Positions 17,401 to 56,400 of a stretch of 64,000 nucleotides of DNA are shown one piece after another. The translations under genes and the position numbers were made by a program. Below the pieces are notes generated by a model that was not told where the DNA came from, did not search any database, and saw only the letters and a program-made list of their open reading frames with translations. Numbering within the stretch: the first letter of the stretch is position 1; each line of letters opens with the position of its first letter. The stretch comes from Centroberyx gerrardi (Eukaryota > Chordata > Actinopteri > Beryciformes > Berycidae), in assembly GCF_048128805.1 (NCBI RefSeq), contig NC_136005.1:6189852-6253851 (forward strand). Reading direction: 5' to 3'.

Positions 17401-20400
17401 TCAGTGATTGAAAAAATTACCTGACACAATCTAAATCACACTGACGCAGTAAACACCGCTCTTCTAATACTTAAAAAATAAATGCCCAGAATGATATGAC
17501 TCTATTATTTACCCCAGGCCCACTCAGTGTATTAACACCAGTCTGTTGTTTTAGGAGTGGCCGAATGAGTTTGTCAGCTGGGACCCGATCCAGTGCGGCG
17601 CCGACCAGATTTCTCTCCCCAGAGACAACTTCTGGGTGCCAGATGTGGTGATCAATGAATTGTGAGTTCCATGCAGCTAAGTTGTAAATCCCATATCAAC
17701 AATGTAGTGACAGAGGAAATATTAGGTTACTATGTGTTTTTAACAGTTGCCTACCAGGTAATTACAGTAGGCAAAATAACAGAATGTTACAATTTAGTAT
17801 AGGCTGCTGTTGTTTTTTTTTGTGATCAATTAATCTCATGCAGAAGTTAGTTTCTTTTATCAATCAATAAGTCATGAGCATGTAAATCACCTACACGTCA
17901 TTAAAAGAAGAAAATAATAAAAAGTAAAGAGGTACATGTGATAGTTAACTTACATAATCAAATGAGTGAAATAAGGCAGGCTAAATGAGAAAAGCGTGAA
18001 AGAAAAGATTGGATTGGTTACAGTGTAGTTTTGTAGTGTTGTTGGAGTGAAGAGACCCGGTCACATATTCTATACGTCACCTAATGGGTGTGCTTAAGTC
18101 CTCTTACATTCGGAGTATGTAAGAAATAGTCTCAATGCAAACGAAACCAGTATGAATAATTATGGGCCATCTATTTATTCTGTAATTGTAAACATAAACC
18201 CGTCTTATCAGCCGTAATCACAAACCGGGGCTACAGTTGAGAAGCTGCATCTATTTCTTAACTATATCAGTGTGCAAACAGTTGAATTAAAGATCCCATG
18301 CTTTCATTTTGCAAACGTTTCATGGATAACCCCGTCTGCTTGTTCCTGTCTTGCAGCATGGATAAGAACACCGCCCCCTTCGTCCCGTATGTGTATCTGC
18401 ACCACGACGGCGAGGTGCACGACGCTCTGCCCGTCAGAGTGGTCAGCTCCTGCAACCTCAACATCTACACCTTCCCCTTCGACGTCCAGAACTGCACGCT
18501 CACCTTCAACTCCTACACCCACGTGGGTGAGGCGCTTCATATTTACAGTAGGACATGCAGGGGTGGAAAGGGTACCAAAACATTCCACTCCAGTAGAAGT
18601 ACTGTTAATTTACTGATATTTTACTGAAGTAGAAGTAAAATTACTGGTGTAAAAGCCTACTCAAGTAAAGGTTAAAAGTAGCTCATTTAAAATGTACTCA
18701 GAGTAAAAGTTACCGAGTTACTTTTTAGAAAAGGGAATGTTGTTAGCTGTGATCTTTTCCATGCAATTTTAAAAGGACAAGAGGAAAGAGTTGAAACTAT
18801 ATTCTTTTAATTGGAAAAATTAGAAATTACAAAATAAAGTGCACCAAGTAAAGCCAGATTTCTCTTCTTACTGTGAATGGATCCACAATTTGTCAATTTA
18901 CGATTGTCTAGTTTCTGATGCTTATGTAGAGCTACAAAATCTGTAGGGATGGGATTTAAAATGTAGCTGAGTAGGCTACAATACAGCAGAATGTTTTTTT
19001 TCTACATAAATCTCTGGCACAGCACCCCGGCCTCTAACTGACACCAACAATAAAGTAAAATTGCACCACAGAGACGAGTAAGCTAGCTTGTTACAGCAGT
19101 GGTCCAACAGAAACGTCTAATGAAGAGTATCTCCATATCTGGGCCATTATATACTGTATTTTACTTAGTCATATACTTTCCTGAAACATTTCCCAAGTGC
19201 ATATTGAACTTACTGAAGATACTGAAGAGTGATATCATTGTCACAATTACAGATAACTTAGAATCAATTATTTCGTGTTTGGAGAGTGTTTTACTGCAGA
19301 TGCACCATGAGAAAAACTGGGCAGTGATATGAGTCTATTTCAATTCAGTTTTCAGATGAGACAAGTCTTCATTTCTATCCCTGCCAAGAGATAATGAAGT
19401 GCCGAGACAAATTTGGTGTGGCCCCAGTTTGAAATAACTGATGTTTAGTGACACAGCTTAGGCAAGCTGGCCATTTACTTTGACATTGATTACGATGAGT
19501 CATTTGTTTTGACAGTGTCAGTGACAATAATGATTTTAATATTGCATTTTTCTTTCCATGAGAAATGCCACTTGTATATTATTGCACTTGTTAGACAAAT
19601 TGATAATGATGTCCTCTCCTCTCTCCTTCCATCTCCTTCCATCTCCTCTCCTCTGCTCTTCTCTCCTCTCCTCTCTTCCTCCTCTGTCCTTTCTTCTTTT
19701 CTCCTCTCCTTTCATCTCCCTCTCCTCTTCTCTCCTCCTCTCTTTCTCTCCTCTCCTCTCTCCTATCCTCTTGTTTCCTCTCCTCCTCTCCGCTTTCTTC
19801 TTTTCTCCTCTCCTTTCATCTCCCTCTCCTCTTCTCTCCTCCTCTCTTTCTCTCTTCTCCTCTCTCCTATCCTCTTGTTTCCTCTCCTCTCCTTTCCTCT
19901 TTTCTCCTCTCCTTTCATCTCCCTCTCCTCTTCTCTCCTCCTCTCTTTCTCTCCTCTCCTCTCTCCTATCCTCTTGTTTCCTCTCCTCCTCTCCTCTCAT
20001 TTCCTCTCCTCTCTTCCTCCTCTCCTCTCCTCTCCTCCTCTCTTCTCATTTCCTCTCCTCTCTTCCTCCTCTCCTCTCCCCTCCTCCCCTCTCTTCCTCC
20101 TCTCCTCTCTTCTCCCCTCCTCTCTTCTCCTCTCCTCTCCTCTTCTCTCCCCTCCTCCTCTCCTCTCATCTTCCTCTCCTCTCTTCCTCCTCTCCTCTCC
20201 TCTCCTCTCCTCTTCTCTCCCCTCCTCCTCTCCTCTCATCTTCCTCTTCTCTCCCCTCCTCCTCTCCTCTCATCTTCCTCTCCTCTCTTCCTCCTCTCCT
20301 CTCCTCTCCCCTCCTCTCTTCCTCCTCTCCTCTCCTCTCATCTTCCTCTCCTCTCCTCTCCTCTCTTCCTCCTCTCCTCTCTTCTCCCCTCCTCTCCTCT

Positions 20401-23400
20401 CCTGTCCTCTCCTCTCTTCCTCCTCTCCTCTCCTCTCCTCTCCTCCCCTCCTCTCTTCCTCCTCTCCTCTCCTCTCCTCTCCTCCTCTCAGCGAGGGATG
20501 TGAGGATGAACCTGGGTAAAGCAGTGGACGACATTACTAAACTCTCCAAGGAGGTGATGACCACCATGGGGGAGTGGCAGCTGCTGGACATCAGCTACCA
20601 TAAATACGTGATGGGAGATGATGACAATGAAGATGATATTTACGATGAGCTTGCATTCCACGTATGTTTAATGTCTGACTGGAGTGAGACCATTTCTCCT
20701 GCGGATGAGGTTTTTTTTTTAGGATTAGATTGGAAATTGCATGCCATGGCCAAATTTCAAGTAAAAGTTTAGATAATTATTATTTGTAGTTGTAGTAGCA
20801 GTAGTAGCATTATGATGAGGAGGATGAAAGGGATGTTGACGATGGTGATTATTAGTATTATATAATTATAATTGGTAGTAGTAGTGGTATTGTTGTTGTA
20901 AAATAATAATCGATACTTTTTATGTAGCCAATCCTGGAGTTCAGAGTAGAGAAGAGTACAGTAGAGTAGAATAGATTTCTGTACATTTTCTGTATATATG
21001 TGGCCTACTTTAGACCCATTAATGTGAATATGTGCACATTTTTCACACGTTATGTATTACTGTAATGTAAGCATGTCCTTGAGTGGAAATTGTCAGATGT
21101 GTATGTAAACATACTGTAACTCCTATTTCCAATTTATATTCTATTTTTCTTTGCTGTATCCCGTTTACTGTTTCCTGCAGCAACGGCCCAATTTCCCCAA
21201 AAAGTTTAATCTATTCTTAAATCTTTATATGAAGGTATAAAGGGAGTCAAAGTAGTAACAATAACAATAATAACATTTTGTGTAATGCTTTTCAAGGCAC
21301 TCAGAGACCATTGTTTTATTTTACATCAGGCAACAAAGCGCCATTGGAAAGAAGACCGTTTTCAAATGTGGACACAAAGGAAACCAAGAATGTGTTTTGT
21401 TTTGTTTTGTTTTCCAATCCAGATCACGGTGCGGCGCAGAGCCACCCTGTATGTGGTGAACCTGCTGATCCCCAGCTGCTTCCTGATCACAGTGGACCTC
21501 TTCAGCTTCCTGCTGCCTCCCCAGAGTGTGGACCGCTCCTCCTTCAAGATGACCCTGATCCTGGGCTACACCGTCTTCCTGCTCATCATGAACGACCTGC
21601 TGCCCATCACCGGGAACACCATTCCTCTCATAAGTCAGTATTATTCTGACGCAAATACACTCTCCGGTGATTCACTGAAATCTGTTACATCTGTTGTCGG
21701 GGCTGCTGCGTCTTTGCCACTTGCACTCCTTATTATCAGTCACTTCTAATGTGGCCAATCAAGGAATTTAAGATTATTCTGCTGTTATACTCGTTGTCTG
21801 CCGTGCAGTGTGCAGACAGACAGCTATCTCGCAATTACAAGTGCAAAGTGTGACGTAAACATTTTCTGCAGAAGATGCAGTGTCTTAGAACTGAATGCAG
21901 GCTGATTGAGGCTGGATTCAACATATTGACACATATAACACATTGATTACATATAATTTACACGCTTAGTGAATGGCATTCTGATTTGTTCATTTTGGTG
22001 ATACAGCACACGCTCTTCCCTGTGCAAATCCTCAGTGTGCTCTCTCTCCTCTCTTTTACTTTGGACAGTGGGTCACGGATTCTATTAAAAATGCATTATA
22101 GGGACGCTGTGAAAAATAAAACAAACATTGGGAACCACTGCTGCAGAAAGGGTCAGTCATCTCTCCCTCTCTCATTTCTATCACAGATGTGTTCTTCTCT
22201 CTCTGCCTGGCTCTGATGGTGGCCAGTCTGCTGGAGACGATCCTCATCACCAACCTGCTGTGTGGCTCCAGTAACTTCTCTCCCGTCCCCCGCTGGGTCA
22301 GAGTGCTCATTCTTCACATCCTGGGCCGCCTGGTGCGGCTTCCTCCAAAGCCTAAAGAACAAACAGATGCAGGTATAAGACTTGTTAGGAGATATACAGT
22401 ATTTTAATAAATGTGTTTGACTATAGAGCCCTAAAACAAACTTGAAATAATAAGTAATCAGGTTTTAAATCACTTCTTGAAACTCTTTGTTATGCGCTTT
22501 GTATGCAATGCGATGCGATGCAATACAATACGATAACTTTACTGTCTATGATGTGAAAATTTGTCTTTGGTTTCACCACAAGAAACAAGACAAGACAATC
22601 AATACAGACCTTTTAAACAACATTGACAATAAAAACAGTAAAAAAAACAGTTACTGAATACGGTGCAGGTGTGGCCTTGGCTATCTCACCTCAACAAAAT
22701 TGCAAGGGTATTTACTGTAAGTGAATCCCAAGTTCCTGGCCCTTGAAACTAAATTTCTAATTTAAATCAACAGAAGATAACAGAACATATTGGGACAGAT
22801 GCATTCACATGACTGTTTCCTAGAAAGGCCAATAGATTTTGGGGGTCTAAGAAAAGTCCAAGAAACCATATCAAAGTGGGTAAATGTAGTTATAATTACC
22901 ATTTTCATAATTGATTATGAAAATCTAACAGCACTGTTTTTTTACATAAAGTCGGTCTAGGAAAAGTCATGGAGGAACATTTTGAGGGCTGAAACATTTC
23001 TATTCTGAAATTCAGAACAGTCATCAATTGGCACAGTGAATGGCAGGTGTGCATTGCATTGTGGGATGGGCCAGGAGGACCTCTCACATGCTCTCTTGTG
23101 TTTCCTTGGAATACAGAAGTGAAGCCTGGCCCTGTAGCAGCACAGCAGAGCGAGGCTGATGGGAAACCTCCAGAGCAGATGGGGCCGGCGGTGGAGGACA
23201 AGACCCTGCAGGAGCTGAGGAGGCTGGGGAAGGACCTCCAGGCCATCCGCCTCCAGGTGGAGCAGCAGCTGACTGGGAACCAGAGCTCTGAGGACTGGAT
23301 CCAGGTGGGTTTCATCATCGACCGCCTGCTGTTCGGCCTCTACATCCTCTTCATATCAATCAGCTTCATTGCCATCATCATTATCTGGTCGAACTCATAC

Positions 23401-23409
23401 AGGCGGTAG
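14455..23409 (+). CDS. 5-HT3 receptor-like Cys-loop channel subunit A (478 aa)
   Basis: Ten exons: 14455-14481 (start exon, tentative), 14724-14787, 15489-15652, 16890-16934, 17555-17661, 18357-18526, 20492-20661, 21423-21633, 22187-22372, 23117-23409. All have AG/GT borders and compatible phases. Order in the protein: hydrophobic signal segment (about 14-30), ligand-binding domain, Cys-loop C168-C182 ([15 protein letters not shown]), M1 about 258-280, M2 ([20 protein letters not shown]), M3 about 321-342, cytoplasmic loop with amphipathic helix, M4 about 450-472. Loop D Trp97 and loop A Glu (INEF) are kept. Loop B is Tyr189 where human 5-HT3A has Trp183. Closest to the 5-HT3 receptor family; a cation channel is predicted from M2. 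The first nine residues (MASKDMTLK) rest on one short exon with weak support. Confidence 0.9.
15850..16445 (-). mobile_element. 5'-truncated L1-type LINE fragment in htr3-like A intron 3
   Basis: Minus-strand frames read like the end of L1 ORF2: [28 protein letters not shown] and [12 protein letters not shown], then WTLXGKYLIW-type text. The retroposon tail shows as a T-run at 15866-15874 on the plus strand. ATCACTTAT on the left and ATCACTATC on the right look like an imperfect target duplication. Frames are broken. Confidence 0.75.
16776..16852. mobile_element. hAT-like terminus
   Basis: The segment ending TTTGGGAACCACTG, with preceding GGACCCCTG-type text, matches the end of the hAT MITE at 39369-39710. 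The partner end was not located. Confidence 0.45.
18550..18725. repeat. Dispersed 'AGTAAAAGTA' type repeat end
   Basis: Multiple variants of ACTCAAGTAAAGG and AGAGTAAAAGTTAC, typical of a common fish DNA-transposon end. In htr3-like A intron 6. Class not settled. Confidence 0.4.
19612..20489 (+). repeat. Pyrimidine-only tandem tract abutting exon 7 of htr3-like A
   Basis: About 880 bp of CTCCT/CTTCT-type units with very few purines, running without a break into the AG that precedes exon 7 at 20492. Long open frames through it on both strands are repeat artefacts. Confidence 0.95.
20985..21195 (+). mobile_element. L2-like LINE 3' tail
   Basis: TGCTGTATCCCGTTTACTG and CGGCCCAATTTCCCC resemble the conserved 3' end of fish L2-type LINEs. 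A better copy lies at 54260-54440. No coding part. Confidence 0.5.
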
Positions 23410-25194: not shown

Positions 25195-28100
25195 CGCTGC
25201 CCGCTGACAGTCAAGCCTTCTAAGGTTCTATTCATCTTCATCTCTGTGCTCATGCATGGTAAGTAAAGTACAGTTCTTACAATACAGTATTATACATAAA
25301 TCTCATTTTCATAGATTTAGTACTATTATCACCTCCTGATGATCTTGTTCAGGATCAAGACAGAGTTGATTACCTCTACCTACCTAACTACCTACCTAAG
25401 TCATTGGTTGAATTAATTCAGGGGGGTTAGTGACACTGATGGTTTATTTTATGGCGTATGGAGGATGCTGTTATGATCTCAATCAATAATAATTGGCAAC
25501 TTTCCAGTATTTTGACATACAGAAGATGTCAAAGATAATGAATTTATTGGGGCATCCTCATGGCTCAGCAGACTCAGGCGACTGTGTGCAATCAAATAAG
25601 CAGAAAAACATATTGACAAACAAAAAAGAAAAAACACATTGAAAGTAAAGCATTACTCAGTTAATAAGCAGGCATGATCTAATGTATCTCTTATTTAAAG
25701 CTACACTAGGCAAGAATTTTAGGAAAAATACACCTGTCAAATCATCTTAGATCACAAGGTGGGGCTTCAAAAGAGAAGAGCGTCCAATCCGCCGTGAGAC
25801 ACCGTAGATTCGCCCTATTTGCCCAAATGAAATTCTTCTATCGGGTTTGGTCAATGGCGGGAAAAGTTCTCTACCCACAGGCAGTGACAAATCACAAAAT
25901 GACAAAATCGTAAAACACAAACTTTATCCTAAACAGCACTGAGCTTCGTAAAGGGAAAAGTTAGAACTCTCTTGACCTGTTGGTAGAAGTACGGCTGTTA
26001 TTTCTGGGTATTGAAATTCCAACATTTTTCCTCTCGCTGCCATTTGGAGCGAAGTCGCCTAGTGCAGATTCAAGAACCATACGACCGGTCTGCCGACAAA
26101 GCGTTCTTCTTCTTCCCTCCGTAGCTCCATGCAGTGCCGTCACGGTGAACTGCTCTCGACCCGACCCGCCGGCCCTCCTGGAGGCTCTCGGCCCGGTCTT
26201 CGACCTGAGCCCCATACGACCCGTCAGGAGCTTGTCGACTCCCACCACCATCAACATTAGCTTCACCCTGTTTGGCATTCTGGGAGTGGTACGGGGCACT
26301 TTATAAAGTATTATTAGTAATTGTTTGTAAGTATAATTATGTACAAAACAGTTTATAATGCAGCTTAAAGTAATGTTTTAACAAATTGTTAGGTCTTTAC
26401 ACTTGTTTGGTTCGATTCATCCGAACCCTAGAGCATTTACTCCTTTAGTTTGGTTTGTTTTGGCAGAAGAGAACAATGCCATTCGAACTCATGTGCCACC
26501 TAACAACCGCACCTTTACCGAGGCTATGGCTGACAACACAGCTAATTTTCACCGGGCTTTAAATAGTCATGTGTTGAAATATACTGTAAGGTCAAAAAAG
26601 CCTTTCATTAAAAAATCAGTGAATCAAACATAAAAAAGCTAAATGTTGGTTTCTTTTTCAGGATGAAAAGGCCCAAGTCCTGTCAACGTATATCTGGCAA
26701 AGGATAGTGAGTACTCAATTTGCAACCTGCATCTGTTCAGTTCTGAAACGACCAAGTTGGACATTAAGAAATCTAACCAGCTGTTCAGAGCTTTAGCTGC
26801 CCAAGACCTGAAGACTGAAGGGTGTTTCGTCACCTGAAAGCTCTCTATATCAGACTGCTTTAAGGACGTATTGCTAGCTGACATTAGCAAATGCTGTGAG
26901 TCAGTTGCTTGTGTCCTTGTGGCTGTGCTTGTGCACCAACCACCTGATATTCAGCAGGTCATCGTTTGTGGACAATTAATCCTGTGATTATCTTGTGTTG
27001 CAGTCATGGACAAATGAGTTTGTCAGCTGGGACCCAGATCAGTGCGGTGCTTCAAGGATTACTCTTCCAAGAAAAAAGCTCTGGGTGCCAGATTTGGTGA
27101 TCAATGAATTGTAAGTTCCATCTAGATCTCTACCCAAGCTATAAATGGGTCAGGACTGAGCCTGATCCGTGCTCCGTGCAAGAAAAGTGAGAGAATTACA
27201 CTTTCCCACCATGATTCCGTGAAGGAGGCACGACTAGGAACAGGTAGTAACGGTGCAACACGATTGGTCGGGGTGATGGTAAACTACCTTCAACTCCAAC
27301 AACCTGGGTTTTTTTCCCTAACCTTAACCAGCTTAGCTTTTCACATGATGAACAGTTGATGTCCAATTCATTCTAATTACATGCTGTTGTCACATAAACC
27401 AAATTATGGTCTGCGTGGTCCAACATGTAGTCTTCGTTTCAGACTTCGTGCTCATTTCATGAAATTTTATGAGATCACATTGGACTTTGAATAGGTCACT
27501 GGCCTGTTGGGTCTCCACATGACAGGAGAACTAGTATGATGCGTTTTACGTTTCCAGCAGCAGCAACAGCGGTTTGTTTAGAATAAATAGAAGAAAAACT
27601 GGGTAGTTAGCATGAGCAGTGATAGCCAGCGAAAGCATTGTTAATTTATTTGTAAGGAGATGTGTGTGGGTTTTGAATTTTGCTGAGTGGGCCTTTATAG
27701 GAGCAGCAGCCAAAAACTTGCCTTGTATAATAAAGTAGCTAATATGTTTGACTTGTTCCTTTTATTTTGCAGAACTTTGCAAGTTTAATAAAAATGCTTT
27801 GCAAATATAGTCATTCTTATTTGTATAAAAGAAAGCTAGTACCAATTATTGTGTTTCCTTTGATTTTATGTTTTCTTTTGAACTCCTGCTTTCTCCCGTC
27901 CTTCAGTATGGCGAAGAACTCGGCTCCGTTTGTCCCATACGTCTATCTCTGGTCTGACGGCACGGTGAAAGATTTTCAGCCCGTCAAAGTGCTCAGCTCC
28001 TGCAGGCTCGACATTTACAACTTCCCCTTCGACATCCAGAACTGCACTTTCACCTTCAACTCCTACTTTCACCGTAGTAAGTAGGAACTTTGTGGATCTT

Positions 28101-28372
28101 TATTTTTTCATTTGTCGGTTCTTTGGTGATTCAACCTTACAGAACATAACACTAGGGTTAGACCAATATATCAAGCCGCTGTTGGCCTTCTTATTAAAAA
28201 TCAGATATCGGCCAGTCAGTGTCATCCACCACCAATATGATAGATATGATGCAGTTTGTTTGATTACATTTTTATTGTAGAATTGATAAATACCAGACAG
28301 GGAAGCCCTTAACTTGATATAACTCTTATGTGACATTTTGATCAGATTCCACAGAAGAGTTTTGTTATTAGC

Positions 28373-28433
<61 letters not shown>

Positions 28434-31400
28434 TCATCATTATTATCATAATCATTATTAGCCTTGGTTTTTCAATGGAGATTTTCAGTGTCCCATGGCC
28501 TAAATGCTGTTTCAGAGGCTTTTCCACCCTGACAAGAATACAATTCTGGGTGCAACACTGAACACTTAATGTTTTATTTAATACTGTTTTGGCATGAAAG
28601 TGGTCAAGTTTAAAGATCTTGAATATCAGCATGATGTGTCAGTACCTCACTTTAACAGCAGCTTCAATCTAAAAATATCTGTATCTGTATCGGCCTTCAA
28701 AAACCCATATCAGTCAGTCTAGTAATTCTTATCCTGCAAGTTGAAAGGTATAAGGTGCACTGTACACATTGGACATGTTTTATAATAATAAAAGCATCAA
28801 ATGTTCCTCTCAGTGTCCGCCGTGCAGATGAAGTTGACGGTGTCTGCAGAGGATATTCTGAGAAACTCTAAAGACGTGATCACAACCATGGGTGAGTGGG
28901 AGCTGGTCGGCATCAGGTCAGAGAAATACCAGCCACCTGCTTCGGGTAAAGAACATCCCTCCGATGACCCTTATGACAAGCTCCGCTTCTACGTAAGGAA
29001 TTACTGTGGTTTGTAACCTTTTAGTGAGCAGGTGACTTTATGTTGAACAATGTTATTTATTCAGACAGTTAGGGAGGGACACAGGATAAAAAAAAGTCTG
29101 GTGAGATTTGATCTCAGGATCATGTGAATCCAGAGACAGGGGTTTTATGAACTTCACCACTGTGGGGCTGTAGCTTATTATTCCACTGCTTATTTTACAT
29201 AATAGTTTATTTTATTTATCCTTTATTTAACCAGGGACCATCTCTTTTTCATCTGAATGTTAATCTGAAAGAGTGTAACATGGGCTAATAGTATATAGTT
29301 ACCGTAACGAAGGTGCATGACCAACATCATATGCAGTTACCTGAACATGAATGCTGTATGTAAAGCCATTACAACCATTGAACAACAACAATGTTTACTT
29401 TTCTACCATACAAATGGACAGTACTTAGCCAAACTAGTGTTGACATTTGGTCACTTTGCGTTGTCAGACAGGATAATGCAGTTGCCCTCTATATTTAAAG
29501 CTACAGTTTAGAATGAATTTTGCCATTTGGGGTATTTTCACATAACTGTTCTTGATGGGTTCATTTTGTACAAGCAAAATAAGCTTTATGCAACTTTATG
29601 TAACCCATCAGAACTTAAAAGACAGTTCTGTTTTCTACATGTTTTCTGCATTACAAATCTAACCAGCCTTTTACAGCCTCAAAATACATGTAAAACTCAT
29701 GTTTAGCTTTTACATACTGACTGCCATTGCATCAAAAGCTCAGACAGTAAATTTCAGTTAAATAAATCTGTATCTAAACAAAGCCAGCGGTGAGGTGATA
29801 GTGTTAAAACTGAAATACATATTGGGCCTTTAACCACTGGCTATTTTGTTATTTCTGCTATATCATTACAGAATTGTGATCATATATGGCACATAAATAA
29901 TCAGAATTATTTAAATCACATTCTGCAACATAGGAATTTGTCTTGGTGACTTGGTGAGTTTCAGGACATACAGACACACAATATGGTACAATGACAGTAG
30001 AACCTCATGTCGAGTGGGAAGGCACGAGACATAATCTGGAGTGTATATGTCATTTTATACACAGTACATTCACAGCACCAGATGTGTCAATAAACATGAC
30101 GGTACTACTGTACATTTATTTACACCGTTCCAGATCACGGTGCGGCGCAGAGCCACCCTGTATGTGGTGAACATCCTGATCCCCAGCTGCTTCCTGATCG
30201 CAGTGGACCTCTTCAGCTTCCTGCTGCCTCCCCAGAGTGTGGACCGCTCCTCCTTCAAGATGACCCTGATCCTGGGCTACACCGTCTTCCTGCTCATGAT
30301 GAGCGACCTGCTGCCCATCACCGGGAACACCATTCCTCTCATGAGTCAGTATAATGCCCATACTGCAGATACATTCAGTGGAATTTGTTTCTTGTTTCTT
30401 GTGGTCTCTGTGACTTTGACCCTTGCACTCCTTACTATTGGTACTTACTATTGCTTGTAATGTTGCTGATCCAGGAAAGTCATCTTTTTTTTTACTGTTG
30501 CTCTCTTTGTAAGTCTCACTGGATAAAAGTGTTAGCAAAATGCCAGACGTGAATGTGAATGAAACGTTAGTAATGCAAAAGCAATTAATCTGGCCTAGAC
30601 CAGCAATGCTGCAATACTCCTGATTCTGATTGAGAAAAGAAATGTAATAGTTTTGTCCCAAAATTCAAAATCCATTTGTGATAAAAATCGCTCACAAGAA
30701 AAATTTTTTTTTGAAAAAACGAAAAAAAAAAAAAAAAAAATTGAAAAACTTTGTCTATTTCAAGATGTCTACAAAATACTATGATTTTTGAGAATAGAAT
30801 GACCTGTAGTTTTGAACTGTTGAATGAGGAATTTCAAGTAAAAGAGTTGGTTTTTTTTTTTTTTGCACAAATGGATCTATGGCACAAGAAAGCATCTTTG
30901 AAGAATATTATGTCCACTGACTCCAGTATCATTGGTCCCCAACCTCTGGTTCGGGACACTCCTAAAGGAATCATATTAGAGAGAGACCAAGGACAGCAAC
31001 TAGCTGTTATGATCCAATCATTTTCACATGTTATTTCTAGTAAAACAAACTACATAAGATCTTGTGAAATCTATCTTTCATTGACTTTTACTTTGACATA
31101 TACATGACTTGTGGGGACAGTGGGTCACAGATTCTATCAAAGGTGCATTATAGGGATGCTGAGAAAAAAAACAAACACTGGGAACCACTGCTGTAGACAG
31201 GGTCAGTCGTCTCTCCCTCTCTCCTCTCTCCATCTCAGATGTGTTCCTGTCTCTCTGCCTGGCTCTGATGGTGGCCAGTCTGCTGGAGACGATCCTCATC
31301 ACCAACCTGCTGTGTGGCTCCAGTAATTTCTCTCCCGTCCCCCGCTGGGTCAGAGTGCTCGTTCTTCACATCCTGGGCCGCCTGGTGCGGCTTCCTCCAA

Positions 31401-32484
31401 AGCCCAGAGATCCAGGAGACACAATCATCCAAAATCCTGCAGCACAAGGTAGAACGTCAGACCTGGGATGTGGTTTTGCACCGGCAACCAGATTAAATGC
31501 TCATTCACATCTAGAACAATAACTATAAAGATAACTATGAACTGTAACAATACATTGTTGCTCAAGCATTCACACTACAACGATATCGGTGATCAGTTCC
31601 TCAGCAAAAAGTGAGCTACCGAATTCTCTGCACCCTTCTTTCTTACAACTTTAATTTGATTGGTTGAAAATGTTTTATCGCTTTCTCTGCATCCCAAAAA
31701 TCGCTCTTGATGGTTTTATAGTTATATTTGTAGTGGGAACACAGACTTTCTATTTGCTTATAATGATTTAAATCTTTTTATAGTTATCGTTCTAGATGTG
31801 AATGGGCCTTAAGACAGATAATAAAGTGATTTCCGGTCCAAGTCTCTCACTGTTGGCCACTGAACAACCCCATGGGAATTAAGGGTTATGTGCCTTGCTC
31901 AACAATTGGTTTTGAGGGAGGAAAGCACATTGCACATTCATTTTCATCAACCAATCAATCAATCATAATCTTTATTTATAATGCAATTTTCGTATAAGTG
32001 AATGCAACTCAAAGTGCTTTCCAGTGCAGTAGATAAGACTGTTTAGGGATTCAAACCAGGAACTTTTCCAGTTACAATCCTGCCTCTTCAGCTTTTAGGC
32101 TGCCACCTACCACAGTGATAAGTAATTCTGGACTGAGTATCTTTGTGCAAAGCCATATAACCAGCCAGCGATGCCATCACCAGCTCTATTCCCTCTGTAA
32201 CAGAAATGAAAGCCTGCCCTCCAGTGGCTGATGGGAAACCTCCAGAGGACAAGGGGCCGGCGGTGGAGGACGAGGCCCTGGAGGAGCTGAGGAGGCTGGG
32301 GAAGGACCTCCAGGCCGTCCGCCTCCAGGTGGAGCAGCAGCTGACTGGGAACCGGAGCTCTGAGGACTGGAACCAGGTGGGTTTCATCATCGACCGCCTG
32401 CTGTTCGGCCTCTACATCCTCTTCATATCAATCAGCTTCATCACCATCACCTGCATTTGGGTGCAGTCGTACAGCATAGTGTGA
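25195..32484 (+). CDS. 5-HT3 receptor-like Cys-loop channel subunit B (476 aa seen, start exon not found)
   Basis: Nine exons: 25195-25258, 26125-26288, 26662-26706, 27004-27110, 27907-28076, 28814-28992, 30134-30344, 31239-31448, 32204-32484, phase-matched to subunit A. The first listed exon reads [20 protein letters not shown] and is preceded by an in-frame TAG that is also part of its acceptor, so the start codon must be in an unseen upstream exon. It has the Cys-loop [15 protein letters not shown], loop D Trp (STYIWQRI) with the Arg two residues on, loop A INEF, loop B Tyr (NSYFH), M2 [20 protein letters not shown] and M4 near the C-terminus. Exon 7 is longer than in the others (179 nt), giving a longer loop before loop C. 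Exons 8-10 are almost identical to A at nucleotide level while exons 2-7 are not. Confidence 0.88.
28152..28722. mobile_element. hAT-like MITE with internal TAG microsatellite
   Basis: The left end AGGGTTAGACCAATATATC and right end ATATCAGTCAGTCTAG are related inverted termini of a fish hAT-type family with ATATCGGCC motifs. The interior includes a TAG tract at 28372-28433. In htr3-like B intron between exons 6 and 7. Confidence 0.55.
31850..32110 (-). mobile_element. SINE-like fragment
   Basis: The text GGGTTATGTGCCTTGCTCAA and the following tRNA-like segment resemble a fish tRNA-derived SINE. Located in the last intron of htr3-like B. Limits approximate. Confidence 0.4.
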
Positions 32485-44600: not shown

Positions 44601-47600
44601 CTGGACTTAAGATTCAATGGATGCATGTCCTCGTGGGTTCAAACCCCATTCCTGGTACACTGTTGATCATCACCTGCGGTCTTTGTAAGAATCTCACCAC
44701 ATTAACAGGCAATGCTGAGCTCTTTACCTTTTTAAAGGATTGGTTTTTGATTTTAAAAGTGTGTTATGTATGATTAGCATGGCCAAAATGTAAAGTCATT
44801 GCAATGCCTACATGTCCTCACTGGTTCAATCCCCACTCCTGCAAAACCTTTAAACATCTGCCGATATTGCAGGAACAGAGTGTAGCAGGAGTGGGGTTTG
44901 AACCCACGAGGATATGCATCCATTGGATCTTAAGTCCAACACCTTAACCACTCGGCCATCCTGGTTCTTCTTCCATTATTGGTGTCATCCTAGAGTGGAG
45001 GTTCATATTGTTAGCAAAAATGAAAATGTATGCCTATAGAACAGCATACACTCCACTTAGGATTCTTAACTGCAGATGGGTTGGGAATTAAGCTGTAACA
45101 TTAGGTGGGGTTTTGAAGAGTATCTCTCTCCATTTTGTCACTCATGCAAGCAGAGAAAGCAACAGCACTGGCAGGAGGATTAAACCTACAGAGACTCGTG
45201 TCCACTGCAACTTGAATGCAATTCCTTAACCAAATTCCTTCAGCCATCCGTGTCACACGAGACGACTGCTTGAAAGGTCAAAAACCAGCCCACTGAGGAT
45301 AAAGCAGTGAGCGGCAGTATTTACCTATGAAGCTACTCAATAGCGCAGAACTCTGTGTTGTCAGAAACCAACAAGCCTTGACACACCCGACACCAATGGT
45401 AGGAGATTTCTAGCTTGCAGACAGGAATACCAGGAGTGGGACTTGAACCCACGAGGACATGCTTCCATTGCATCTTGAGTGCAACGCCTTAACCGCTCGG
45501 CCATCCTGGTCCCATGACAATGCTTGTTGAAAGGTCAAATATCAACCGACAATAGATGAACCAGTCAGCAGCTGTATTTATCCATGAAGCTACTCAAAAG
45601 CATTGAAACCATTCATTTATGTAAACCCAAAGAAACCTTCATTGTTGTTACAGAATTGGAATATGAAAGCCTGTAGGCAAATGCATTCACTGCACCTTGA
45701 CTGCAATGCTTGACACAAACAAATCCCATTACAGACAAAACAAACAATCCCATTACAGATAAAAACTCTCTCTTACTTTCTCTCTTTTCCCCTGAAGGTG
45801 ACGAGCATTGAAACAATCATTCATTTATGTGGCTTTTTCATTCATTGGCTTCTTTTACAGGAACAGAGTAGGTTTTATGAAAGGCAATAGAGAGAAATTA
45901 GGTCAGGCAACTTTAATGTCTGTGTTAGATTATGCAACATCTTCCAACATACTGTATATCTTTAAGATGCTGCCTACCATGATGGCCTCTGCATCATTAA
46001 GGATGTTTTCAGACACATCAATGTGAACTGATATTAGCATTTTAACTTTTCTTAGCTGCTTGGGAGGAGCAGCTCTATAAGAGGCTGGTTCTGAGTGTCT
46101 GTGTGTAATGCTTTTTGCAAAGGTGTAGGGAAATACACTTCAGTTATTATTATATCAGAAATAAAACCGGCCAACTGTTGGTACATGGTGAGCTCACACA
46201 GCCCATTGTTTATCAAACATTACTGCATAAATCATTGCATTATCTCGTATCTCTCTGATAATTTTGGCTGCCAACTTATCAAACCAGATCCCGATATTAT
46301 CTAGTCTTGGATATATCACATGCTGTATCAGGATGGATCTTTATTATGCACCAAACTAATTAATGTTCATGTTTTTGTAATATTCATATTGTTTGTTTGA
46401 TGCTCCTATTAGTAATGATTTATTATGTAGTGATTACATATTTTATCCATACTGATGCACCTTGCTTTTCATATTGATTTATATTACATTGTTGTGCTTT
46501 ATAATTGTTGCCATTTGATCTGTGCACATAAGAAGATGATTGCTCTCATGGTGTTGCAGATTGAAGTTTTAGAAATAATTTTATTGATTTAATTAAACTT
46601 CAATGGGCGGAGCAAAAAATTACCAGAAGTAATGTTAGACTGAAACCCAGTGAAAAATGAAGGAGTAGGAGGAAGCTAATATTTTGAACCTAGCACGCTT
46701 GCTACTAACAAAAAATGCAATCTAGTAATTTTTTTAGGTTAGCTAGTTAGCCTAGCAGACCTTCAAAGTTCATACTATATAGCCATACTAGCCATAGCTA
46801 TGTAGGTAAGCTAGTTGGCTAGCTGACTGACCTTCCAACATCATGAATGAATGAAAAAAGAAGTAATTGTCATTTATATTTTTATTGATATTTTGACCAG
46901 AGTTCCTTTCTTTGCCATTCCAGTTTTCCAGTTAGCTAACTTGTGCTCTGAAAATCTCAGAATATCCAAGTATTATTTCAACCAATACAATTATTTCTGC
47001 CTCGAGCAGCTTTGCCTCCGAGAAATGTTTGTAAAAACTCCAGTCTGCCACTGTGTCCCAGCCTTTATACATACAACTTGAATAAAAAAGTGTTTTTTTT
47101 CTTTTCTTTCCATTCTGCCTTCCTTTTGTCTCCTGTAGACGTCTTCTTCTTGATCAGTCTGGCTCTGATGGTGGCCAGCCTGTTGGAGACGGTGTTCATC
47201 ACGAACATCCAGTTCAGCTCCAGCCACTACAGTGCGGTGCCTCACTGGCTGAGCGTCTTCGTGCTGCAGTATCTGGCTCGGGTCGTCTGCCTCCCTCCCC
47301 AAGCAAGGAGCAACCGAGTCACCGTCAGCATCAACTCATCTGCTAGAGGTAACTGTGGGCACATAATAATGATAATAATAATAATAACGTTACTACTACT
47401 AATGCTAATATTTATACTACTAGTACTACTCATAACAATTTTGTATGGAACTTCTTAACAAAGTTAGCCCAACGGTTCGCGTAAAAATGGCCGCCACTCC
47501 GACGATCCAGGAATGTTGATATGAATGGAAATGACCGTTTTATCCATTCAAGTTCTGTAGGATCTTCTCCAGTGAAGCGGCTTGTGAGAATTGATGTTTG

Positions 47601-48332
47601 GTAGCACGCAACTATAGGTGTTCGGTTGTAGGTTGTGTTCCCTTGACTGTGCAGTAGACATTAGAGAGACAGGAAAGACTGGGAGCGATAACATGTGACA
47701 ACCAATAATAATAATAATAATTTGTCCACCAAAACTGTATGTTAGCTAGCCTACTATTCTTTAAAATGTACCAGAATTTGCTTTGATTTTGTGCTCTCAG
47801 TGATTTTTTGAGCATGACCTTTTTTCAAATAGTGGATATCTCATTTTGGAATGAAACTCAATTAGAGTGTCAAAGTGTATTAGGTATCATAATGTTGATG
47901 CCCAGTTATCTACACTTTACATTGCCAATACTCAATAACTAGCCATTTGACAAAAGGTGTCACACCATCTGACGAATTCTAACATCACTCTGTTCTTCCT
48001 TTTCTATTCACCCAGCGAAGAGTGTCAGCATCGCGCCTCCTGCGGAACCTCAGATCTACATCTCAGCAGTGGAGCTTCGGAAGCTCTCCAGCAGTCCGCC
48101 TCCAGAGAAACCCCCTCTGGACCCGGTGCTGGAGGAGCTCAGCAAGCTGACTAGGGATCTGTTGGCCATCCGCCTCCAGATGGAGAAACACTTCAAGGGG
48201 ACCCAGAGCTCGCAGGAATGGCACAGGATCGGGATAGTCATCGACCGCCTGCTGTTCGGCCTCTACATCATCTTCATCACCACCAGCTTTGTCACCATCA
48301 TCTGTATCTGGACCTGGAGTAACACGTTCTAA
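35649..48332 (+). CDS. 5-HT3 receptor-like Cys-loop channel subunit C (479 aa)
   Basis: Nine exons: 35649-35706, 36477-36637, 37060-37104, 37520-37626, 38638-38807, 40974-41134, 42451-42661, 47139-47348, 48016-48332. Exon 1 gives a complete signal peptide ([20 protein letters not shown]). Then come the ligand-binding domain with loop D Trp (TTFLWQLL), Cys-loop [15 protein letters not shown], loop B Tyr (GSYLH), a loop C YYEIEYF segment, M1-M3, a cytoplasmic loop ending in a charged helix, and M4 before the C-terminus SNTF. The acceptor before exon 7 is an unusual GAG (TTCATGAG), accepted because phase and homology fit. Exon 7 from TATGTGGTG onward is nearly the same as in A and B, its first 26 bases are not. 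Intron 7 (42662-47138) hosts tRNA-Leu genes. Confidence 0.9.
35867..36155. mobile_element. hAT-like MITE piece (GCTGAAACAATTAGTC family)
   Basis: AGTGCTGAAACAATTAGTC followed by ATTAATCGATTACTCGATC and an inverted ATAATCGATTAGTC is a familiar fish hAT terminus. The right border is uncertain. In htr3-like C intron 1. Confidence 0.5.
36764..37010. repeat. Retroelement tail-like piece followed by AAAAC satellite
   Basis: AGGATCCCCATTAGCTTTGC and CAGCTAGTCTTCCTGGGGTC (dispersed fish repeat text) lead into about 105 bp of AAAAC units at 36905-37009, 50 bp before exon 3 of htr3-like C. Confidence 0.6.
37640..37910. repeat. Dispersed repeat shared with 19000-19130 and 58480-58800
   Basis: GTGGCCTGTAATTGACACAA then AATAAAGTCACATTTT recurs at 58581 and, more diverged, at 19030. 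The following GGAAAGTGAGTTTTG block also recurs near 58730. Probably a SINE. Confidence 0.55.
38810..38863. repeat. GATA microsatellite at the exon 5 donor of htr3-like C
   Basis: The donor GTGAGA runs straight into GATA repeats three bases downstream of the splice site. Confidence 0.85.
39234..40475. mobile_element. hAT-type non-autonomous element, 1.24 kb, with a nested hAT MITE
   Basis: Ends CAAGGGCGTAGG and CTACGCCCTTG are inverted repeats. Both flanks carry the 8-bp duplication ATGTGAAG (39226-39233 and 40476-40483), the hAT hallmark. No transposase was recognised. In htr3-like C intron 5. Confidence 0.85.
39369..39710. mobile_element. hAT MITE inserted in the larger hAT element
   Basis: 342 bp with ends CAGTGATTCTCAACC and GAGAACCACTG, flanked by a perfect 8-bp duplication ATCTAGAT (39361-39368 and 39711-39718). 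An inverted truncated relative is at 13291. Confidence 0.92.
40570..40886. mobile_element. Tc1/mariner-type MITE
   Basis: Ends TACACTACCAGTCAAAAGTT and AACTTTTGACTGGTAGTGTA are exact inverted repeats with TA at each border. Same family as 341-716. Ends about 90 bp before exon 6 of htr3-like C. Confidence 0.9.
41951..42251. mobile_element. hAT-like MITE (GGCTGGGCGATAT family)
   Basis: Left ATGGCTGGGCGATAT and right ATTATCGCCCAGCCCTA are inverted ends of a widespread fish MITE, with internal ATCACGATA motifs. In htr3-like C intron 6. Confidence 0.7.
42905..43440. repeat. CCCCAC tract and palindromic MITE in htr3-like C intron 7
   Basis: A CCCCAC tract (42905-42957) precedes a long inverted repeat with arms TTTCCTAGAAAGGAACTG (about 43012) and CAGTTCCTTTCTAGGAAAT (about 43408). 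Confidence 0.6.
44575..44657 (+). tRNA. tRNA-Leu (anticodon TAA)
   Basis: 83 bases, cloverleaf of the eukaryotic tRNA-Leu-TAA type: A-box TGGCTGAGTGG, anticodon loop CTTAAGA (anticodon 44608-44610), long variable arm, B-box GGTTCAAACCC, acceptor ACCAGGA pairing with TCCTGGT. One C-A mismatch and a G-T pair in the anticodon stem suggest slight decay. No T4 terminator close by. Lies in intron 7 of htr3-like C, sense orientation. Confidence 0.85.
44798..44843 (+). pseudogene. tRNA-Leu 3'-half relic
   Basis: ATTGCAATGCCTACATGTCC and GGTTCAATCCCCACTCCTG match the second half of the neighbouring tRNA-Leu, without a 5' half. Confidence 0.6.
44883..44965 (-). tRNA. tRNA-Leu (anticodon TAA), antisense in intron
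   Basis: 83 bases. A-box TGGCCGAGTGG, anticodon loop CTTAAGA with a perfect stem (TTGGA/TCCAA), B-box GGTTCAAACCC. The acceptor stem has one C-C mismatch (3' side TCCTGCT). A TTTT lies about 25 bases downstream. May be functional. Confidence 0.82.
45169..45250 (-). pseudogene. Decayed tRNA-Leu copy
   Basis: The plus strand reads CTCGTGTCCACTGCAACTTG and then CCTTAACC..CAGCCATCC, a scrambled relative of the tRNA at 45428-45510. A shorter relic lies near 45680-45712. Confidence 0.55.
45428..45510 (-). tRNA. tRNA-Leu (anticodon CAA)
   Basis: 83 bases with intact acceptor stem (ACCAGGA/TCCTGGT), A-box TGGCCGAGCGG, anticodon stem TTGCA/TGCAA and loop CTCAAGA (anticodon CAA), B-box GGTTCAAGTCC. 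No intron. The body is of the tRNA-Leu-TAA type, so the CAA anticodon probably arose by one change. Antisense in htr3-like C intron 7. Confidence 0.85.
46556..47050. mobile_element. Palindromic MITE (same family as 10887-11430)
   Basis: The left arm CAGATTGAAGTTTTAG and CTTCAATGGGCGGAGC and the right arm ATTATTTCTGCCTCGAGCAG and AACTCCAGTCTGCC are inverted. Ends about 90 bp before exon 8 of htr3-like C. Confidence 0.65.
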
Positions 48333-49748: not shown

Positions 49749-49834
49749 TACCAGGAATGGGGTTTGAACACATGAAGATCTGCATCCATTGGATCTTAAG
49801 TCCAACACCTTAAAAACCACTCGGCCATCCTGGT
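49749..49834 (-). pseudogene. tRNA-Leu-TAA pseudogene
   Basis: 86 bases with three extra T in the D-arm (GGTTTTTAAGG) and a disrupted T-stem (ATGTG against CCCAT). Flanks are copied from the intron cluster (see findings). Confidence 0.8.
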
Positions 49835-50660: not shown

Positions 50661-51053
50661 GCGTGTGTGTGTATCCATGTTTGAGCAAGAGAAAGAGCAG
50701 TTAATTTTACAATATTGCAATTTGAGATGTGACAGTTTTATTGGAAATCGCATCGGCACTTCTTTTATTTACTTGCAGTTTGCATTAAAGTAAAATACAC
50801 CAACACTTCATTTTTGTGATAAGAAATTAAATGAACATGCACACATCTGTCGTCCGTTCGTTTGTGCGTGTGTGTAGTTGCACGTACGTCCAAGTGTGAT
50901 TGTGGGTGTGCGTGTGTATCTTGTGTGTGCATGTGTTTCAGTGCGTGTGTGTGTGTGTGTGTGCGTGTGTGTGTGTGGACGCTGAATGCTTCACACAGCG
51001 ATCAGATCAGTGTTTCAGATGTTTGGTCGGTTAGAAGCGTCTGACCAGCCAGC

Positions 51054-52367: not shown

Positions 52368-52426
<59 letters not shown>

Positions 52427-53453
52427 CTCCCTCTCTCTCCAGTCTGCCTCTGTCACAGTGAGCTGACCTGTAAAGAAGGCCACAGCGGTCCGACCCATGA
52501 GTCCATGCAGGCCGTGTTTGACCGAAAACCCTTCAGGCCGGCGGTGAACCTCAGTAACCCGACCATCACCAACATCTCCTTCACCCTGTACGCCGTCCTG
52601 GGGGTGGTGAGCGAGTCAACTTACAAAAACTATCAGGAGCACCTACAGGATCCAGGCTAAAGCTATGATCCTGTTCAATCCACTTCAGTCGTGAGGAGAG
52701 CGAGGAGACAAACATGTTATATTCTAAATATGCTATTCACGTCACTGGATACACTGAATATATTATTACATATTATGACATAATTATAATGCATTCTTGA
52801 CTTGAGTGACCCTAAAGTGGCGTAGGCAACAATCAGCTTCACATGAGGTTTGTCTGTTGTTTTATTTCAGAATGAGAAGACACAGATACTCACTACCTTC
52901 CTGTGGCTGAGACTGGTAAGTGGCACTTTTTACCATCCACCTCATCTACTCTAATGTAATCTAATCTAATCTAATCTAATCTAATCTAATCTAATCTAAT
53001 CATCAGTCATCTTTTGGCTTAAAAAATCTATTGAGAGATTTACTGGCTGCAGCAGATGTTTGCAGTTTACGTGGGAAGTTAGGAGTTTAACTGTATTTCG
53101 TGTTTTTCCTCTGCAGTACTGGCACCATGAGTTCCTGGTTTGGGACCCTGACAAGTGCGACGGCGTCACCAGGATTTCTCTCCCCGTGAAGCAGCTCTGG
53201 TCCCCTGACATCATCGTCTACGAGTTGTGAGTTTGAACAAATTGATCTTCCTTTTTTTGCTGGATCAATACAGGGAAAATATCACTCTCACTAACTAAAT
53301 AACTCTTCACTATATTGAGTTGTAAAGATAACCTGCAAATATCTGAATCTGAATTTCTTTTTCTGATGTTTCCATATGTCACCTAAAATAAGCTACCTAT
53401 TTTACATCTCCCACCTAGTGATGGAGTGGTAAATGTACTTGTAAACTGATTTT

Positions 53454-53497
<44 letters not shown>

Positions 53498-56400
53498 TAG
53501 CTGATGGTCTTATGCAGAGCGACTTACAATGAGTGCAACATTAGAATAAGATTAAATTCCTACATCATCAATATTACTAGCAACCAATAGTAAGGACTGC
53601 AAGAGTTGGAGCCGTGACACTCGTAAGATAGATGCAACAAAATATTCCTGTGATCCAAAGAAGTGTGAGGGAAGGAAATAACAGCAGAGTTACAAAGGGT
53701 TTGTTTCTGCTACAAGACAAGAGCAAAAAGTGGGTAAACAACAAGAATATTTTCAGAAAATATAGGTTTTATACTCTTGGAAAGACACTATTTCCACTTC
53801 ACATTTTATGATATATCATAAACATTTATAAAAGGAGGGTTAAGTTCACACATTAAAAGCGTGAGTGCGTTCAGGTTTATCCTTCATTACATCTGACCTC
53901 CTCCCCCCTCCTTGTAAATTTCCACCTCCTCCTGTTCATCCTCCTTCTGTTTCTGCAAATTTTCACACCTCACGCTTCACATGGTTCTCTCTCCTAAATA
54001 CCGCTTTTGAATTTTTCCATTTTCTTGCCTCCTAAATCTCTCATACATTGCCTGAACCAATGTCTTAATTTCTCTCTTTCTTTCTTTTTCTTTTTCTTTC
54101 ATTTTGTCATTTGCATTTTGTCATTTTTCTGTACATACATTACCTCCATCATCAGTTTTTGATAAGAGGATAAATGGCAATGTGCATATTTAAGTCAACA
54201 CACACCCTAATAATGCTGTAATCCATACTTTATTGCATAGTTTCATTCTACTTAACACATTCTAGTGTTGAAATTCTTGGTTATGTGTATTTATGTAGCC
54301 CCCATTTGCTATATTCTTGCTCATATTTTATTTTTCTGTTTATATTTTTCCCTGCTGTATCCTATTACTATTTGCTGCTGACCCAATTTCCCCATGGGGA
54401 TCATTAAAGTATCATCTCATCTTATCTTATTTTTCTTTCTGTCATTGTGGTTTCATTTCTTTCTTTCACCTCTTTGTCTCTTCCCTCTGTTTTTCTCAGT
54501 GTGGATGACGATGTTTCCCAGGCGTGTCCCTACGTCTACGTCAACCACACGGGTCACATCCGCTGGGACAGGATGCTGCGGCTGGTGTCGGCCTGCAACC
54601 TGGAGATCTTCAGTTTCCCTTTCGACGTGCAGAACTGCACGTTCACCTTCGGCTCCTACATGCACACCAGTAACCACGCACCCATTAACATTTATATAAT
54701 TTATATAATCATACAGTCATTAACTCATCCAGTCATAGGCTACGCATGAATAAATGTGGATTGGAAACACAGGTGTTCCTCTCACTAAAGGTTGTTAAAT
54801 AAAGTTTTATTTAGTGTTTTTTTAGGAGATTGGACATTTGGTGAACTTACCTATTTAGTGATGAGAACACAGACACCAAAATGATCCATGTGTCCCCGGT
54901 AGATCATTTGCATACACTATGTTGAGTGATGGTAGGTGACTAGCATTATTTCAAAGTAGCAAGACCGACTTTTTTGGAATAAAAAGCTGTGAGTAGTTTT
55001 TATTATATGGCCTGTAGATTCATAAATTTAAAAAATGTAATATTTAACTCAATGTTACTTTTGGAAATATTTTAGATATTCATCCACAGCACAGTGATTT
55101 TTAGCTGTACACAGTCTCCCATTGCCCACTACCTTTACTTCCTAAACAGGAAAAGTAGTCCATGATAGTTCTTTCCTAATGTTTTTTGTGTAAATTTTAT
55201 GTAAATTTTATCAATCAACTACACAAAACCAACAGACTTCAAGATAACTTACCATTTAGCTGTATAGCTGCTACAAGATCTCACTTTTGTGATCATGCTA
55301 GAAATAGCACAACACATGGAATAACAATAAAAACAAGCGAATAAAAAATAAAAGATTTAAAAAAAAAATTAATACAAAGAATAAATGACAAATTAAGATT
55401 AATTACATACAAAACAGCTTATAAAATTAGTCTTAATCATTCATTTAAAAGATGAAATGATTTAGCTAGCCCGGATTTAGCTATTTTAGTTAGCTTAGAT
55501 CAATCTATCTAGCTTTGTCTTGCTCGTCGTCTTTCCCTCACAGTTCGGGATGTGAGGGTGAGTCCAGCTCTGACCTTTGAGGAGATGTCAGGAAACTCCA
55601 AGCGTTACCTGGAGGCCAGCGGGGAGTGGGAGGTGGTGGTCATCCTGGGAGAGGCTTCCATCCTGCGGTTCGGCATCGACGAGTGGGACATCATCACCTT
55701 CTGGGTGAGGCGTCGTACAGTCCAGGTCTCACTGGACTCATTAAAACTTAAACCGTCAACAAGTTGATGTAGTGGTGAATAAAAAGATGGGTGAACTGTG
55801 ACCTCCAGTCGGCGATTATCACACAGCAAACGACCACTAACATGAATAAAAATCAATGTTTCAGAAATGCATTTGTGTATGCTTTTTTCCCTTAAAGGCA
55901 TAGTTCACCCCAAAATGAAAATTCACTCATTAACTACTCATCCCCCATGTCAGCTGAAACTCCACTGAAGTTGGTAGGAAAACTAAACGCACAGCGAGCT
56001 CTATCTCAGCATCTCCCAGACTGTTGAAGTTAATGGAGCCATCTTTTTACAGCTCCAATAAAGCATAAAATGTCCATCAAATTTCTCCAAACAACTCGTG
56101 CAGCATTTGCACTGTGGGTCCAAAAGTCCAATATTTACCTCATCGTATCCTAAACTCCTGACATGGGGGTGAGTAGATAAAGAGTGAATTTTCATTTTGG
56201 GGTGAATATCCCTTTAAACACCCAATCTTTATATAACCTGCATTCTAAATTTCAGTTGAGTAATCTGTCAATCTACAGATTTGTTTAAATGAGTAAACTT
56301 AGTAATAAAATAAACTTTTTAACCTGGGCCACAGCAGATAAATACAATAACATGGGGGTTTGGTGCAAAGGCCTCAGAATGTAGCATAATTAACCAAATT

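What the first reader, a model, noticed from the sequence alone, without database searches (positions are those of the whole stretch)
18357..54669. Loop B tryptophan replaced by tyrosine in all four receptors
Human 5-HT3A Trp183 (TSWLHT), which makes the cation-pi contact with serotonin, is Tyr in A (NSYTH), B (NSYFH), C (GSYLH) and D (GSYMH). Loop D Trp and the loop A Glu are kept, but the loop E residue matching Tyr153 is Ala, Phe, Asp and Asp. The agonist may not be serotonin, or its potency may be altered.
Basis: partly seen in the sequence, partly recalled or inferred. Interest (0 to 1): 0.75.

Follow-up and report, generated by a model that had tools for sequence, protein, structure and literature searches.

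The report
Fish serotonin-type channels lacking key tryptophan
Four neighbouring fish genes for serotonin-receptor-like ion channels share one inherited change in the pocket that grips serotonin, and one of them may have moved the gripping residue elsewhere in the pocket, as a worm serotonin channel did.

Summary
The window holds four tandem 5-HT3-like genes (A-D), open over all modelled exons. The residue aligned with 5-HT3A loop B Trp183 is Tyr (codon TAC) in 4 of 4. HTR3A and an HTR3B-like gene of the same genome keep Trp. A-D form one clade (support 92/91), so this is one inherited change, not four.

The same substitution in mouse 5-HT3A (W156Y, human W183) stays serotonin-gated, but EC50 rises from 2.70 to 306 uM and granisetron binding is undetectable (PMC6642186). 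Mouse and human B-E subunits also lack this Trp (PMC7655109), and serotonin-gated MOD-1 has Tyr there (PMC9471462).

New here: subunit D pairs the loop B Tyr with Trp at loop C position 234, the MOD-1 arrangement, and has Tyr at the nicotinic loop A position. The zinc (ZAC) analogy fails: ZAC Tyr176 lies two residues upstream.

Best reading: cation-channel paralogues with a largely kept aromatic box but weak serotonin and setron sensitivity; D is the best candidate for a relocated cation-pi site. Function is inferred only.

The parts
15491..23406 (+). Gene A, 5-HT3-like subunit, 8 modelled exons: 15491-15652 (5' border not defined), 16890-16934, 17555-17661, 18357-18526, 20492-20661, 21423-21633, 22187-22372, 23117-23406 (stop follows)
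   Evidence: GT-AG introns, open frame of 447 aa without start and signal exon; Pfam Neur_chan_LBD 1.2e-39 and Neur_chan_memb 3.6e-22
26145..32481 (+). Gene B, 8 modelled exons: 26145-26288 (5' border not defined), 26662-26706, 27004-27110, 27907-28076, 28814-28992, 30134-30344, 31239-31448, 32204-32481
   Evidence: 448 aa; Pfam
36488..48329 (+). Gene C, 8 modelled exons: 36488-36637 (5' border not defined), 37060-37104, 37520-37626, 38638-38807, 40974-41134, 42451-42661, 47139-47348, 48016-48329
   Evidence: 456 aa; Pfam
52460..59903 (+). Gene D, 8 modelled exons: 52460-52606 (5' border not defined), 52871-52915, 53117-53226, 54500-54669, 55544-55704, 56748-56958, 58840-59148, 59671-59903
   Evidence: 462 aa; Pfam; closest solved chains are 5-HT3A
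18514..18516 (+). A: loop B Tyr codon TAC, aligned with Trp183 of 5-HT3A
28064..28066 (+). B: loop B Tyr codon TAC
38795..38797 (+). C: loop B Tyr codon TAC
54657..54659 (+). D: loop B Tyr codon TAC
55684..55686 (+). D: loop C Trp codon TGG at the Tyr234 position, giving the TyrB + TrpC arrangement of MOD-1
   Evidence: no gap from here to the RRP motif of M1 in the alignment with mouse 5-HT3A
53219..53221 (+). D: loop A Tyr codon TAC at the Asn128 position (nicotinic TyrA), followed by the kept Glu129
   Evidence: TyrA equals Asn of 5-HT3 by PMC4006026

Best explanation
A-D are subunits of a 5-HT3-like, cation-permeable Cys-loop receptor family that arose by tandem duplication in this fish lineage. 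Their common ancestor replaced loop B Trp with Tyr once (shown on this tree, moderate support). Much of the aromatic box is kept: W90, E129, Y143, a Tyr at 183 and an aromatic at 234 in all four (shown). So the pocket most likely still holds an amine by cation-pi contact, but with a weaker loop B face. Serotonin is therefore expected to act only at high concentration, if at all, and setrons to be nearly inactive (inferred from the identical mutant of mouse 5-HT3A). In D the main cation-pi contact is expected to have moved to loop C Trp, as proposed for MOD-1 (inferred).
For: Four open genes with both Cys-loop receptor domains. Closest solved structures are 5-HT3A, best E 6.5e-98 for A and 2.2e-109 for D (B and C not searched). 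One gain of Tyr on the tree; clade support 92/91, and 90/92 with the loop B columns left out. Whole-gene dN/dS 0.31-0.56 over the six pairs. Pocket table: W90, E129, F130, Y143, T179, Tyr183, H185 each 4 of 4; aromatic at 234 in 4 of 4. The one C20 and one C7 gene read have lost several of these (C20 keeps E129; its W90 was not modelled). M2 keeps an acid at -1' (Asp for Glu) and Asp at 20' (positions recalled). Mouse W156Y: serotonin EC50 306 against 2.70 uM, no detectable granisetron binding (PMC6642186). MOD-1 has Tyr in loop B and Trp in loop C (PMC9471462).
Against: No expression, binding or current data. Complementary-face and loop F residues used by 5-HT3A are largely lost: W195, D204, F226 and Y153 in 0 of 4 (the first three in gapped stretches), more than a single Trp-to-Tyr change. 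B has Lys at 236 and Ala at 189, so its pocket may not work alone. D has Ile at 236. Support for D belonging with A-C is below the starred level (92/91). The W156Y values come from a mouse scaffold that kept everything else.
Confidence: 0.5

Rival explanations
1. A-D are accessory subunits, as mammalian 5-HT3B-E are held to be: they join HTR3A in heteromers, agonist binds at HTR3A interfaces, and the loop B residue of A-D no longer matters for binding.
For: Mouse and human subunits other than A lack the loop B Trp and loop D Arg (PMC7655109 passages). R92 is lost in A and C, and W195, D204, F226 in all four. The genome has an HTR3A with loop B Trp and Y153.
Against: A relaxed position should drift: C20 and C7 paralogues show A, V, V, V, V, V and M, I, V there, while all four window genes keep an aromatic, and D has two further aromatic replacements in the box.
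Confidence: 0.28
2. The agonist is a different small amine (for example tyramine, histamine, choline or acetylcholine), and the pocket was retuned for it.
For: D carries the nicotinic TyrA with the 5-HT3 GluA, and TrpC. Tyr or Phe in loop B is usual in GABA and glycine receptors, and Tyr makes a cation-pi contact in the rho GABA receptor (PMC4006026 passages). The loop C exon is 44% identical between A and B and 24-35% in the other five pairs, the lowest of the eight exons in 5 of 6 pairs.
Against: E129, held to contact serotonin, is kept 4 of 4. No ligand can be named from sequence.
Confidence: 0.2
3. Zinc-activated channel: the loop B Tyr acts like Tyr176 of human ZAC.
For: Tyr176 in ZAC loop B is essential for zinc gating (PMC13036004 section 6), and a medaka protein called olZAC is zinc-activated and as close to 5-HT3 subunits as to ZAC (same source).
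Against: In ZAC the Tyr is 5 residues after the second Cys of the Cys-loop (C-S-L-S-F-Y); in A-D it is 7 after, and the ZAC-equivalent residue is N, N, G, G. No ZAC chain is among the 60 hits shown of 118 for A or the 60 shown of 92 for D. Whether olZAC (8WGE) is held in that copy was not checked.
Confidence: 0.03

Closest known systems
5-HT3A receptor (mouse, human; HTR3A)
   Same: Cys-loop, W90, E129, F130, Y143, T179, H185, M2 with Asp 20' and acidic -1', closest solved structure of A and D
   Different: Loop B Tyr for Trp; Y153, F226, W195, D204 lost; a separate HTR3A gene, grouping with mouse 5-HT3A, exists on C11 of the same genome
Mouse and human 5-HT3 subunits other than A (B-E)
   Same: Lack of the loop B Trp (PMC7655109 passages)
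   Different: Those sequences were not compared here; window genes keep an aromatic at the site. Orthology untested; the one synteny marker tried (Dishevelled, for human 3q27, recalled) is not on C9
MOD-1, C. elegans serotonin-gated chloride channel
   Same: Tyr in loop B (4 of 4) and Trp in loop C (D only)
   Different: MOD-1 is an anion channel; A-D have a cation-type M2. MOD-1's sequence was not aligned here; its residues are taken from PMC9471462
GABA-A rho receptor
   Same: Tyr in loop B, with a cation-pi contact (PMC4006026 passages)
   Different: Anion channel; other loops not compared here
Zinc-activated channel ZAC
   Same: A functionally vital Tyr in loop B
   Different: Two residues away from the Trp183 position

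Membership tests
Cys-loop (pentameric) ligand-gated ion channels | Neur_chan_LBD and Neur_chan_memb domains | tested here: met
   4 of 4 proteins above both Pfam cut-offs
5-HT3 receptor subunits | Closest to 5-HT3 among solved receptors | tested here: met
   A and D: the 16 best PDB hits are 5-HT3A, then nicotinic subunits; B and C not searched
5-HT3 receptor subunits | Cation-selective pore signature in M2 | tested here: met
   Asp at -1' and Asp at 20' in 4 of 4 (alignment; position names recalled); ion selectivity itself inferred
5-HT3A (binding-competent subunit) | Loop B Trp183 | tested here: not met
   Tyr in 4 of 4
5-HT3A (binding-competent subunit) | Loop D Arg92 | tested here: not met
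   T, R, L, R: met in B and D only
5-HT3A (orthologue) | Groups with mouse 5-HT3A | tested here: not met
   A gene on C11 does (94/98); window genes form another clade
5-HT3 receptors | Opened by serotonin | not testable with these tools
   Needs recordings
MOD-1-like serotonin channel | TyrB with TrpC | tested here: met
   D only, 1 of 4; A, B, C have TyrB with TyrC
MOD-1-like serotonin channel | Anion-selective pore | tested here: not met
   Cation-type M2
ZAC | Tyr at the Tyr176 position of loop B | tested here: not met
   N, N, G, G at that position
Human 5-HT3C-E orthologues | Orthology by tree or synteny | not tested
   No C-E sequence was at hand; Dishevelled not on C9 is only weak evidence

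The most novel reading that the evidence does not exclude
Subunit D is a vertebrate cation channel in which the serotonin-gripping cation-pi contact has moved from loop B to loop C, so that worm MOD-1 and a fish 5-HT3-like receptor reached the same TyrB + TrpC pocket independently; together with a nicotinic TyrA it would make a hybrid amine receptor that I saw described in none of the listings or passages.
Probability: 0.22. Interest if true: 0.65.

Novelty: new variant of a known kind. Interest (0 to 1): 0.45.

Why it matters
Loop B Trp is held to be central to serotonin recognition in 5-HT3 receptors. A tandem set of natural receptors with open channel genes, most of the aromatic box and a shared Tyr there is a ready-made series for asking which residues really set agonist identity. 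D tests whether the relocation proposed for MOD-1 can arise in a vertebrate cation channel. For fish pharmacology it predicts serotonin-type channels that setrons would block poorly.

Tried and rejected
Zinc channel: rejected on position. Assembly or annotation slip: unlikely, since four separate loci show the same codon in open frames with GT-AG introns. Four independent losses of Trp: not needed, one gain suffices. Pseudogenes: no broken frame over the modelled part; B first looked frame-shifted after loop B, but the sequence printed (28770-28880) shows a CAG|TG acceptor that fits the strong GTAAGT donor. Link to human HTR3C-E by synteny: Dishevelled matches lie on C13, C14, C23 and C6, none on C9; no support, not a disproof. 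Other genes in the flank: the 6 open frames scanned between 2313 and 14016 gave no Pfam match at E up to 0.01; the rest of the flanks was not scanned. Structure prediction was not run: the tool asks for proteins that the DNA gives letter for letter, and spliced proteins are not; with no gap in the loop B alignment it would add little. A paper search for W183Y with 5-HT3 found 0; the value came from W156Y in mature numbering.
Full report
What is there. The window lies in a genome of 778,876,752 bases (C9:6189852-6253851); its size and its HTR3-type gene content suggest a bony fish (inference). Reading the exons by homology gave four genes in tandem on the + strand, A to D, each with the same 8 modelled exons; the start codon, the signal exon and the 5' border of exon 1 were not modelled. 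All 28 of 28 introns between these exons are GT-AG and all frames are open: 447, 448, 456 and 462 residues. Each carries the ligand-binding and transmembrane domains of Cys-loop receptors (4 of 4). The 16 best solved relatives of A and of D are 5-HT3A chains (B and C were not searched).

The observation. Between the Cys-loop and loop B the alignment with 5-HT3A has no gap. The residue at Trp183 is Tyr in 4 of 4, codon TAC each time.

Control within the same genome. A search with the loop B exon of B found 28 matches at E up to 0.01. By loop B residue: two genes on C11 have Trp (HTR3A, which groups with mouse 5-HT3A, and a neighbour that I call HTR3B from its place and its M2, recalled); the four window genes have Tyr; six on C20 have A, V, V, V, V, V; three on C7 have M, I, V; the 13 others look nicotinic (by motif, inferred) and have Trp. 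One further locus, L006, also has Trp. Of these, only the window set has Tyr. Candidates come from a first look, so weaker family members may be missed.

One event. A maximum-likelihood tree of 13 rows puts A-D together (92/91; 90/92 with the loop B columns removed), with D outside A, B and C (98/99), and HTR3A with mouse 5-HT3A (94/98). The nicotinic rows, HTR3A and HTR3B all have Trp, so Trp is most simply ancestral and Tyr gained once; the three loop B states (W, Y, aliphatic) need 2 changes in all. Neither clade value for A-D reaches the tool's starred level. Four of the rows (fish HTR3A, HTR3B, C20, C7) are hand-joined exon pieces and the C7 branch is long.

The rest of the pocket. Kept in 4 of 4: W90, E129, F130, Y143, T179, H185, and an aromatic at 234. 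Lost: Y153, F226, W195, D204 (0 of 4 each; the last three lie in gapped stretches). Mixed: R92 T, R, L, R; D189 D, A, D, D; E236 E, K, E, I; N128 N, N, S, Y. D is the odd one: Trp at loop C 234 and Tyr at loop A 128. Position 128 is Asn in 5-HT3 and is the TyrA of nicotinic receptors (PMC4006026 passages).

What the Tyr means. Mouse 5-HT3A W156Y (W183 in human numbering) was opened by serotonin with EC50 306 uM against 2.70 uM for wild type, and the paper cites no detectable granisetron binding for it (PMC6642186 passages). So Tyr does not forbid serotonin, but in an otherwise unchanged pocket it costs about 100-fold. Cys at this site abolished tropisetron and granisetron binding with comparable expression on Western blot (PMC5464333 passages); mutation of W183 also gave no saturable VUF10166 binding (PMC4220016 passages). 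MOD-1 has Tyr in loop B and Trp in loop C, and its cation-pi contact is suggested to have moved to loop C (PMC9471462, one passage; PMC4006026 passages). GABA and glycine receptors have Tyr or Phe in loop B, and the rho Tyr makes a cation-pi contact.

What is known. [quoted passage not shown] A survey of metazoan 5-HT3 subunits calls the Trp (W184 there) highly conserved in its 5HT3A set except in molluscs, flatworms and echinoderms (PMC9977066: outline with abstract, passages, sections 10 and 18). I found no paper on a Tyr-bearing fish clade, or on TyrB + TrpC in a vertebrate, in searches, of which I saw listings and the passages cited; this library lacks most subscription journals, and the fish genes may well stand in databases under names such as '5-HT3A-like' (recalled).

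Zinc. Human ZAC needs Tyr176 of loop B for zinc gating (PMC13036004 passages and section 6). The ZAC sequence puts that Tyr 5 residues after the second Cys of the Cys-loop; Trp183 and the Tyr of A-D are at 7. The likeness is by name only.

Pore exons are homogenised, binding exons are not. Between A and B the M1-M2 exon has dS 0.01, M3 0.08 and M4 0.16, while the five binding-domain exons have dS 0.47 to 3.03 (the last from 15 codons only); the loop C exon has 44% identity. M1-M2 is also low for A-C and B-C (0.24, 0.22). This points to gene conversion of the pore part while the binding part diverged. Positive selection is not shown: in the binding-domain exons dN is below dS in all 21 of 30 pair-by-exon cells where dS could be computed (9 were saturated). 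In the pore and M4 exons dN exceeds dS slightly in A-B M1-M2 (0.036 against 0.01), A-B M4 (0.184 against 0.16) and B-D M4 (0.873 against 0.83). Whole-gene dN/dS is 0.31 to 0.56.

Verdict. Observation confirmed; interpretation partly supported. Shown: the residues, open frames, the single origin on this tree (moderate support), and D's loop A and C aromatics. Inferred: cation selectivity, weak serotonin and setron action, relocation of the contact in D. Untested: expression, assembly, agonist, orthology with human C-E.

Noticed in passing
21423-21633 and 30134-30344 (also 42451-42661): M1-M2 exons of A and B are almost identical at silent sites (dS 0.01) while their binding-domain exons are far apart (dS 0.47 or more); suggests gene conversion of pore exons.
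   Followed up: partly
L038 (C11:30575001-30585000): The fish HTR3B-like gene keeps loop B Trp (FRSWLH) and a loop D WYRQ with Arg92, residues said to be exclusive to subunit A in mouse and human; its binding site may be complete.
   Followed up: no
23117-23406, 32204-32481, 48016-48329, 59671-59903: Of three MA-helix arginines known (recalled: R432, R436, R440) to limit 5-HT3A conductance, the first is kept in 4 of 4 and the other two are Q,N / Q,N / H,T / L,S in A, B, C, D (read from the alignments); higher single-channel conductance would be expected.
   Followed up: no
19612-20484: An 873-base CT-rich array (unit about TCCTC) ends 7 bases before the loop C exon of A; overlapping long ORFs in three frames run through it.
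   Followed up: no
38811-38863: An AGAT repeat array begins at the fourth intron base after the loop B exon of C, inside the GTGAGA donor.
   Followed up: no
C20:9677599-9742497 and C7:28505677-28517725: Two further 5-HT3-like clusters (6 and 3 loop B exons found) have aliphatic residues or Met at the loop B site; the one gene of each that was read has lost other pocket residues too.
   Followed up: partly
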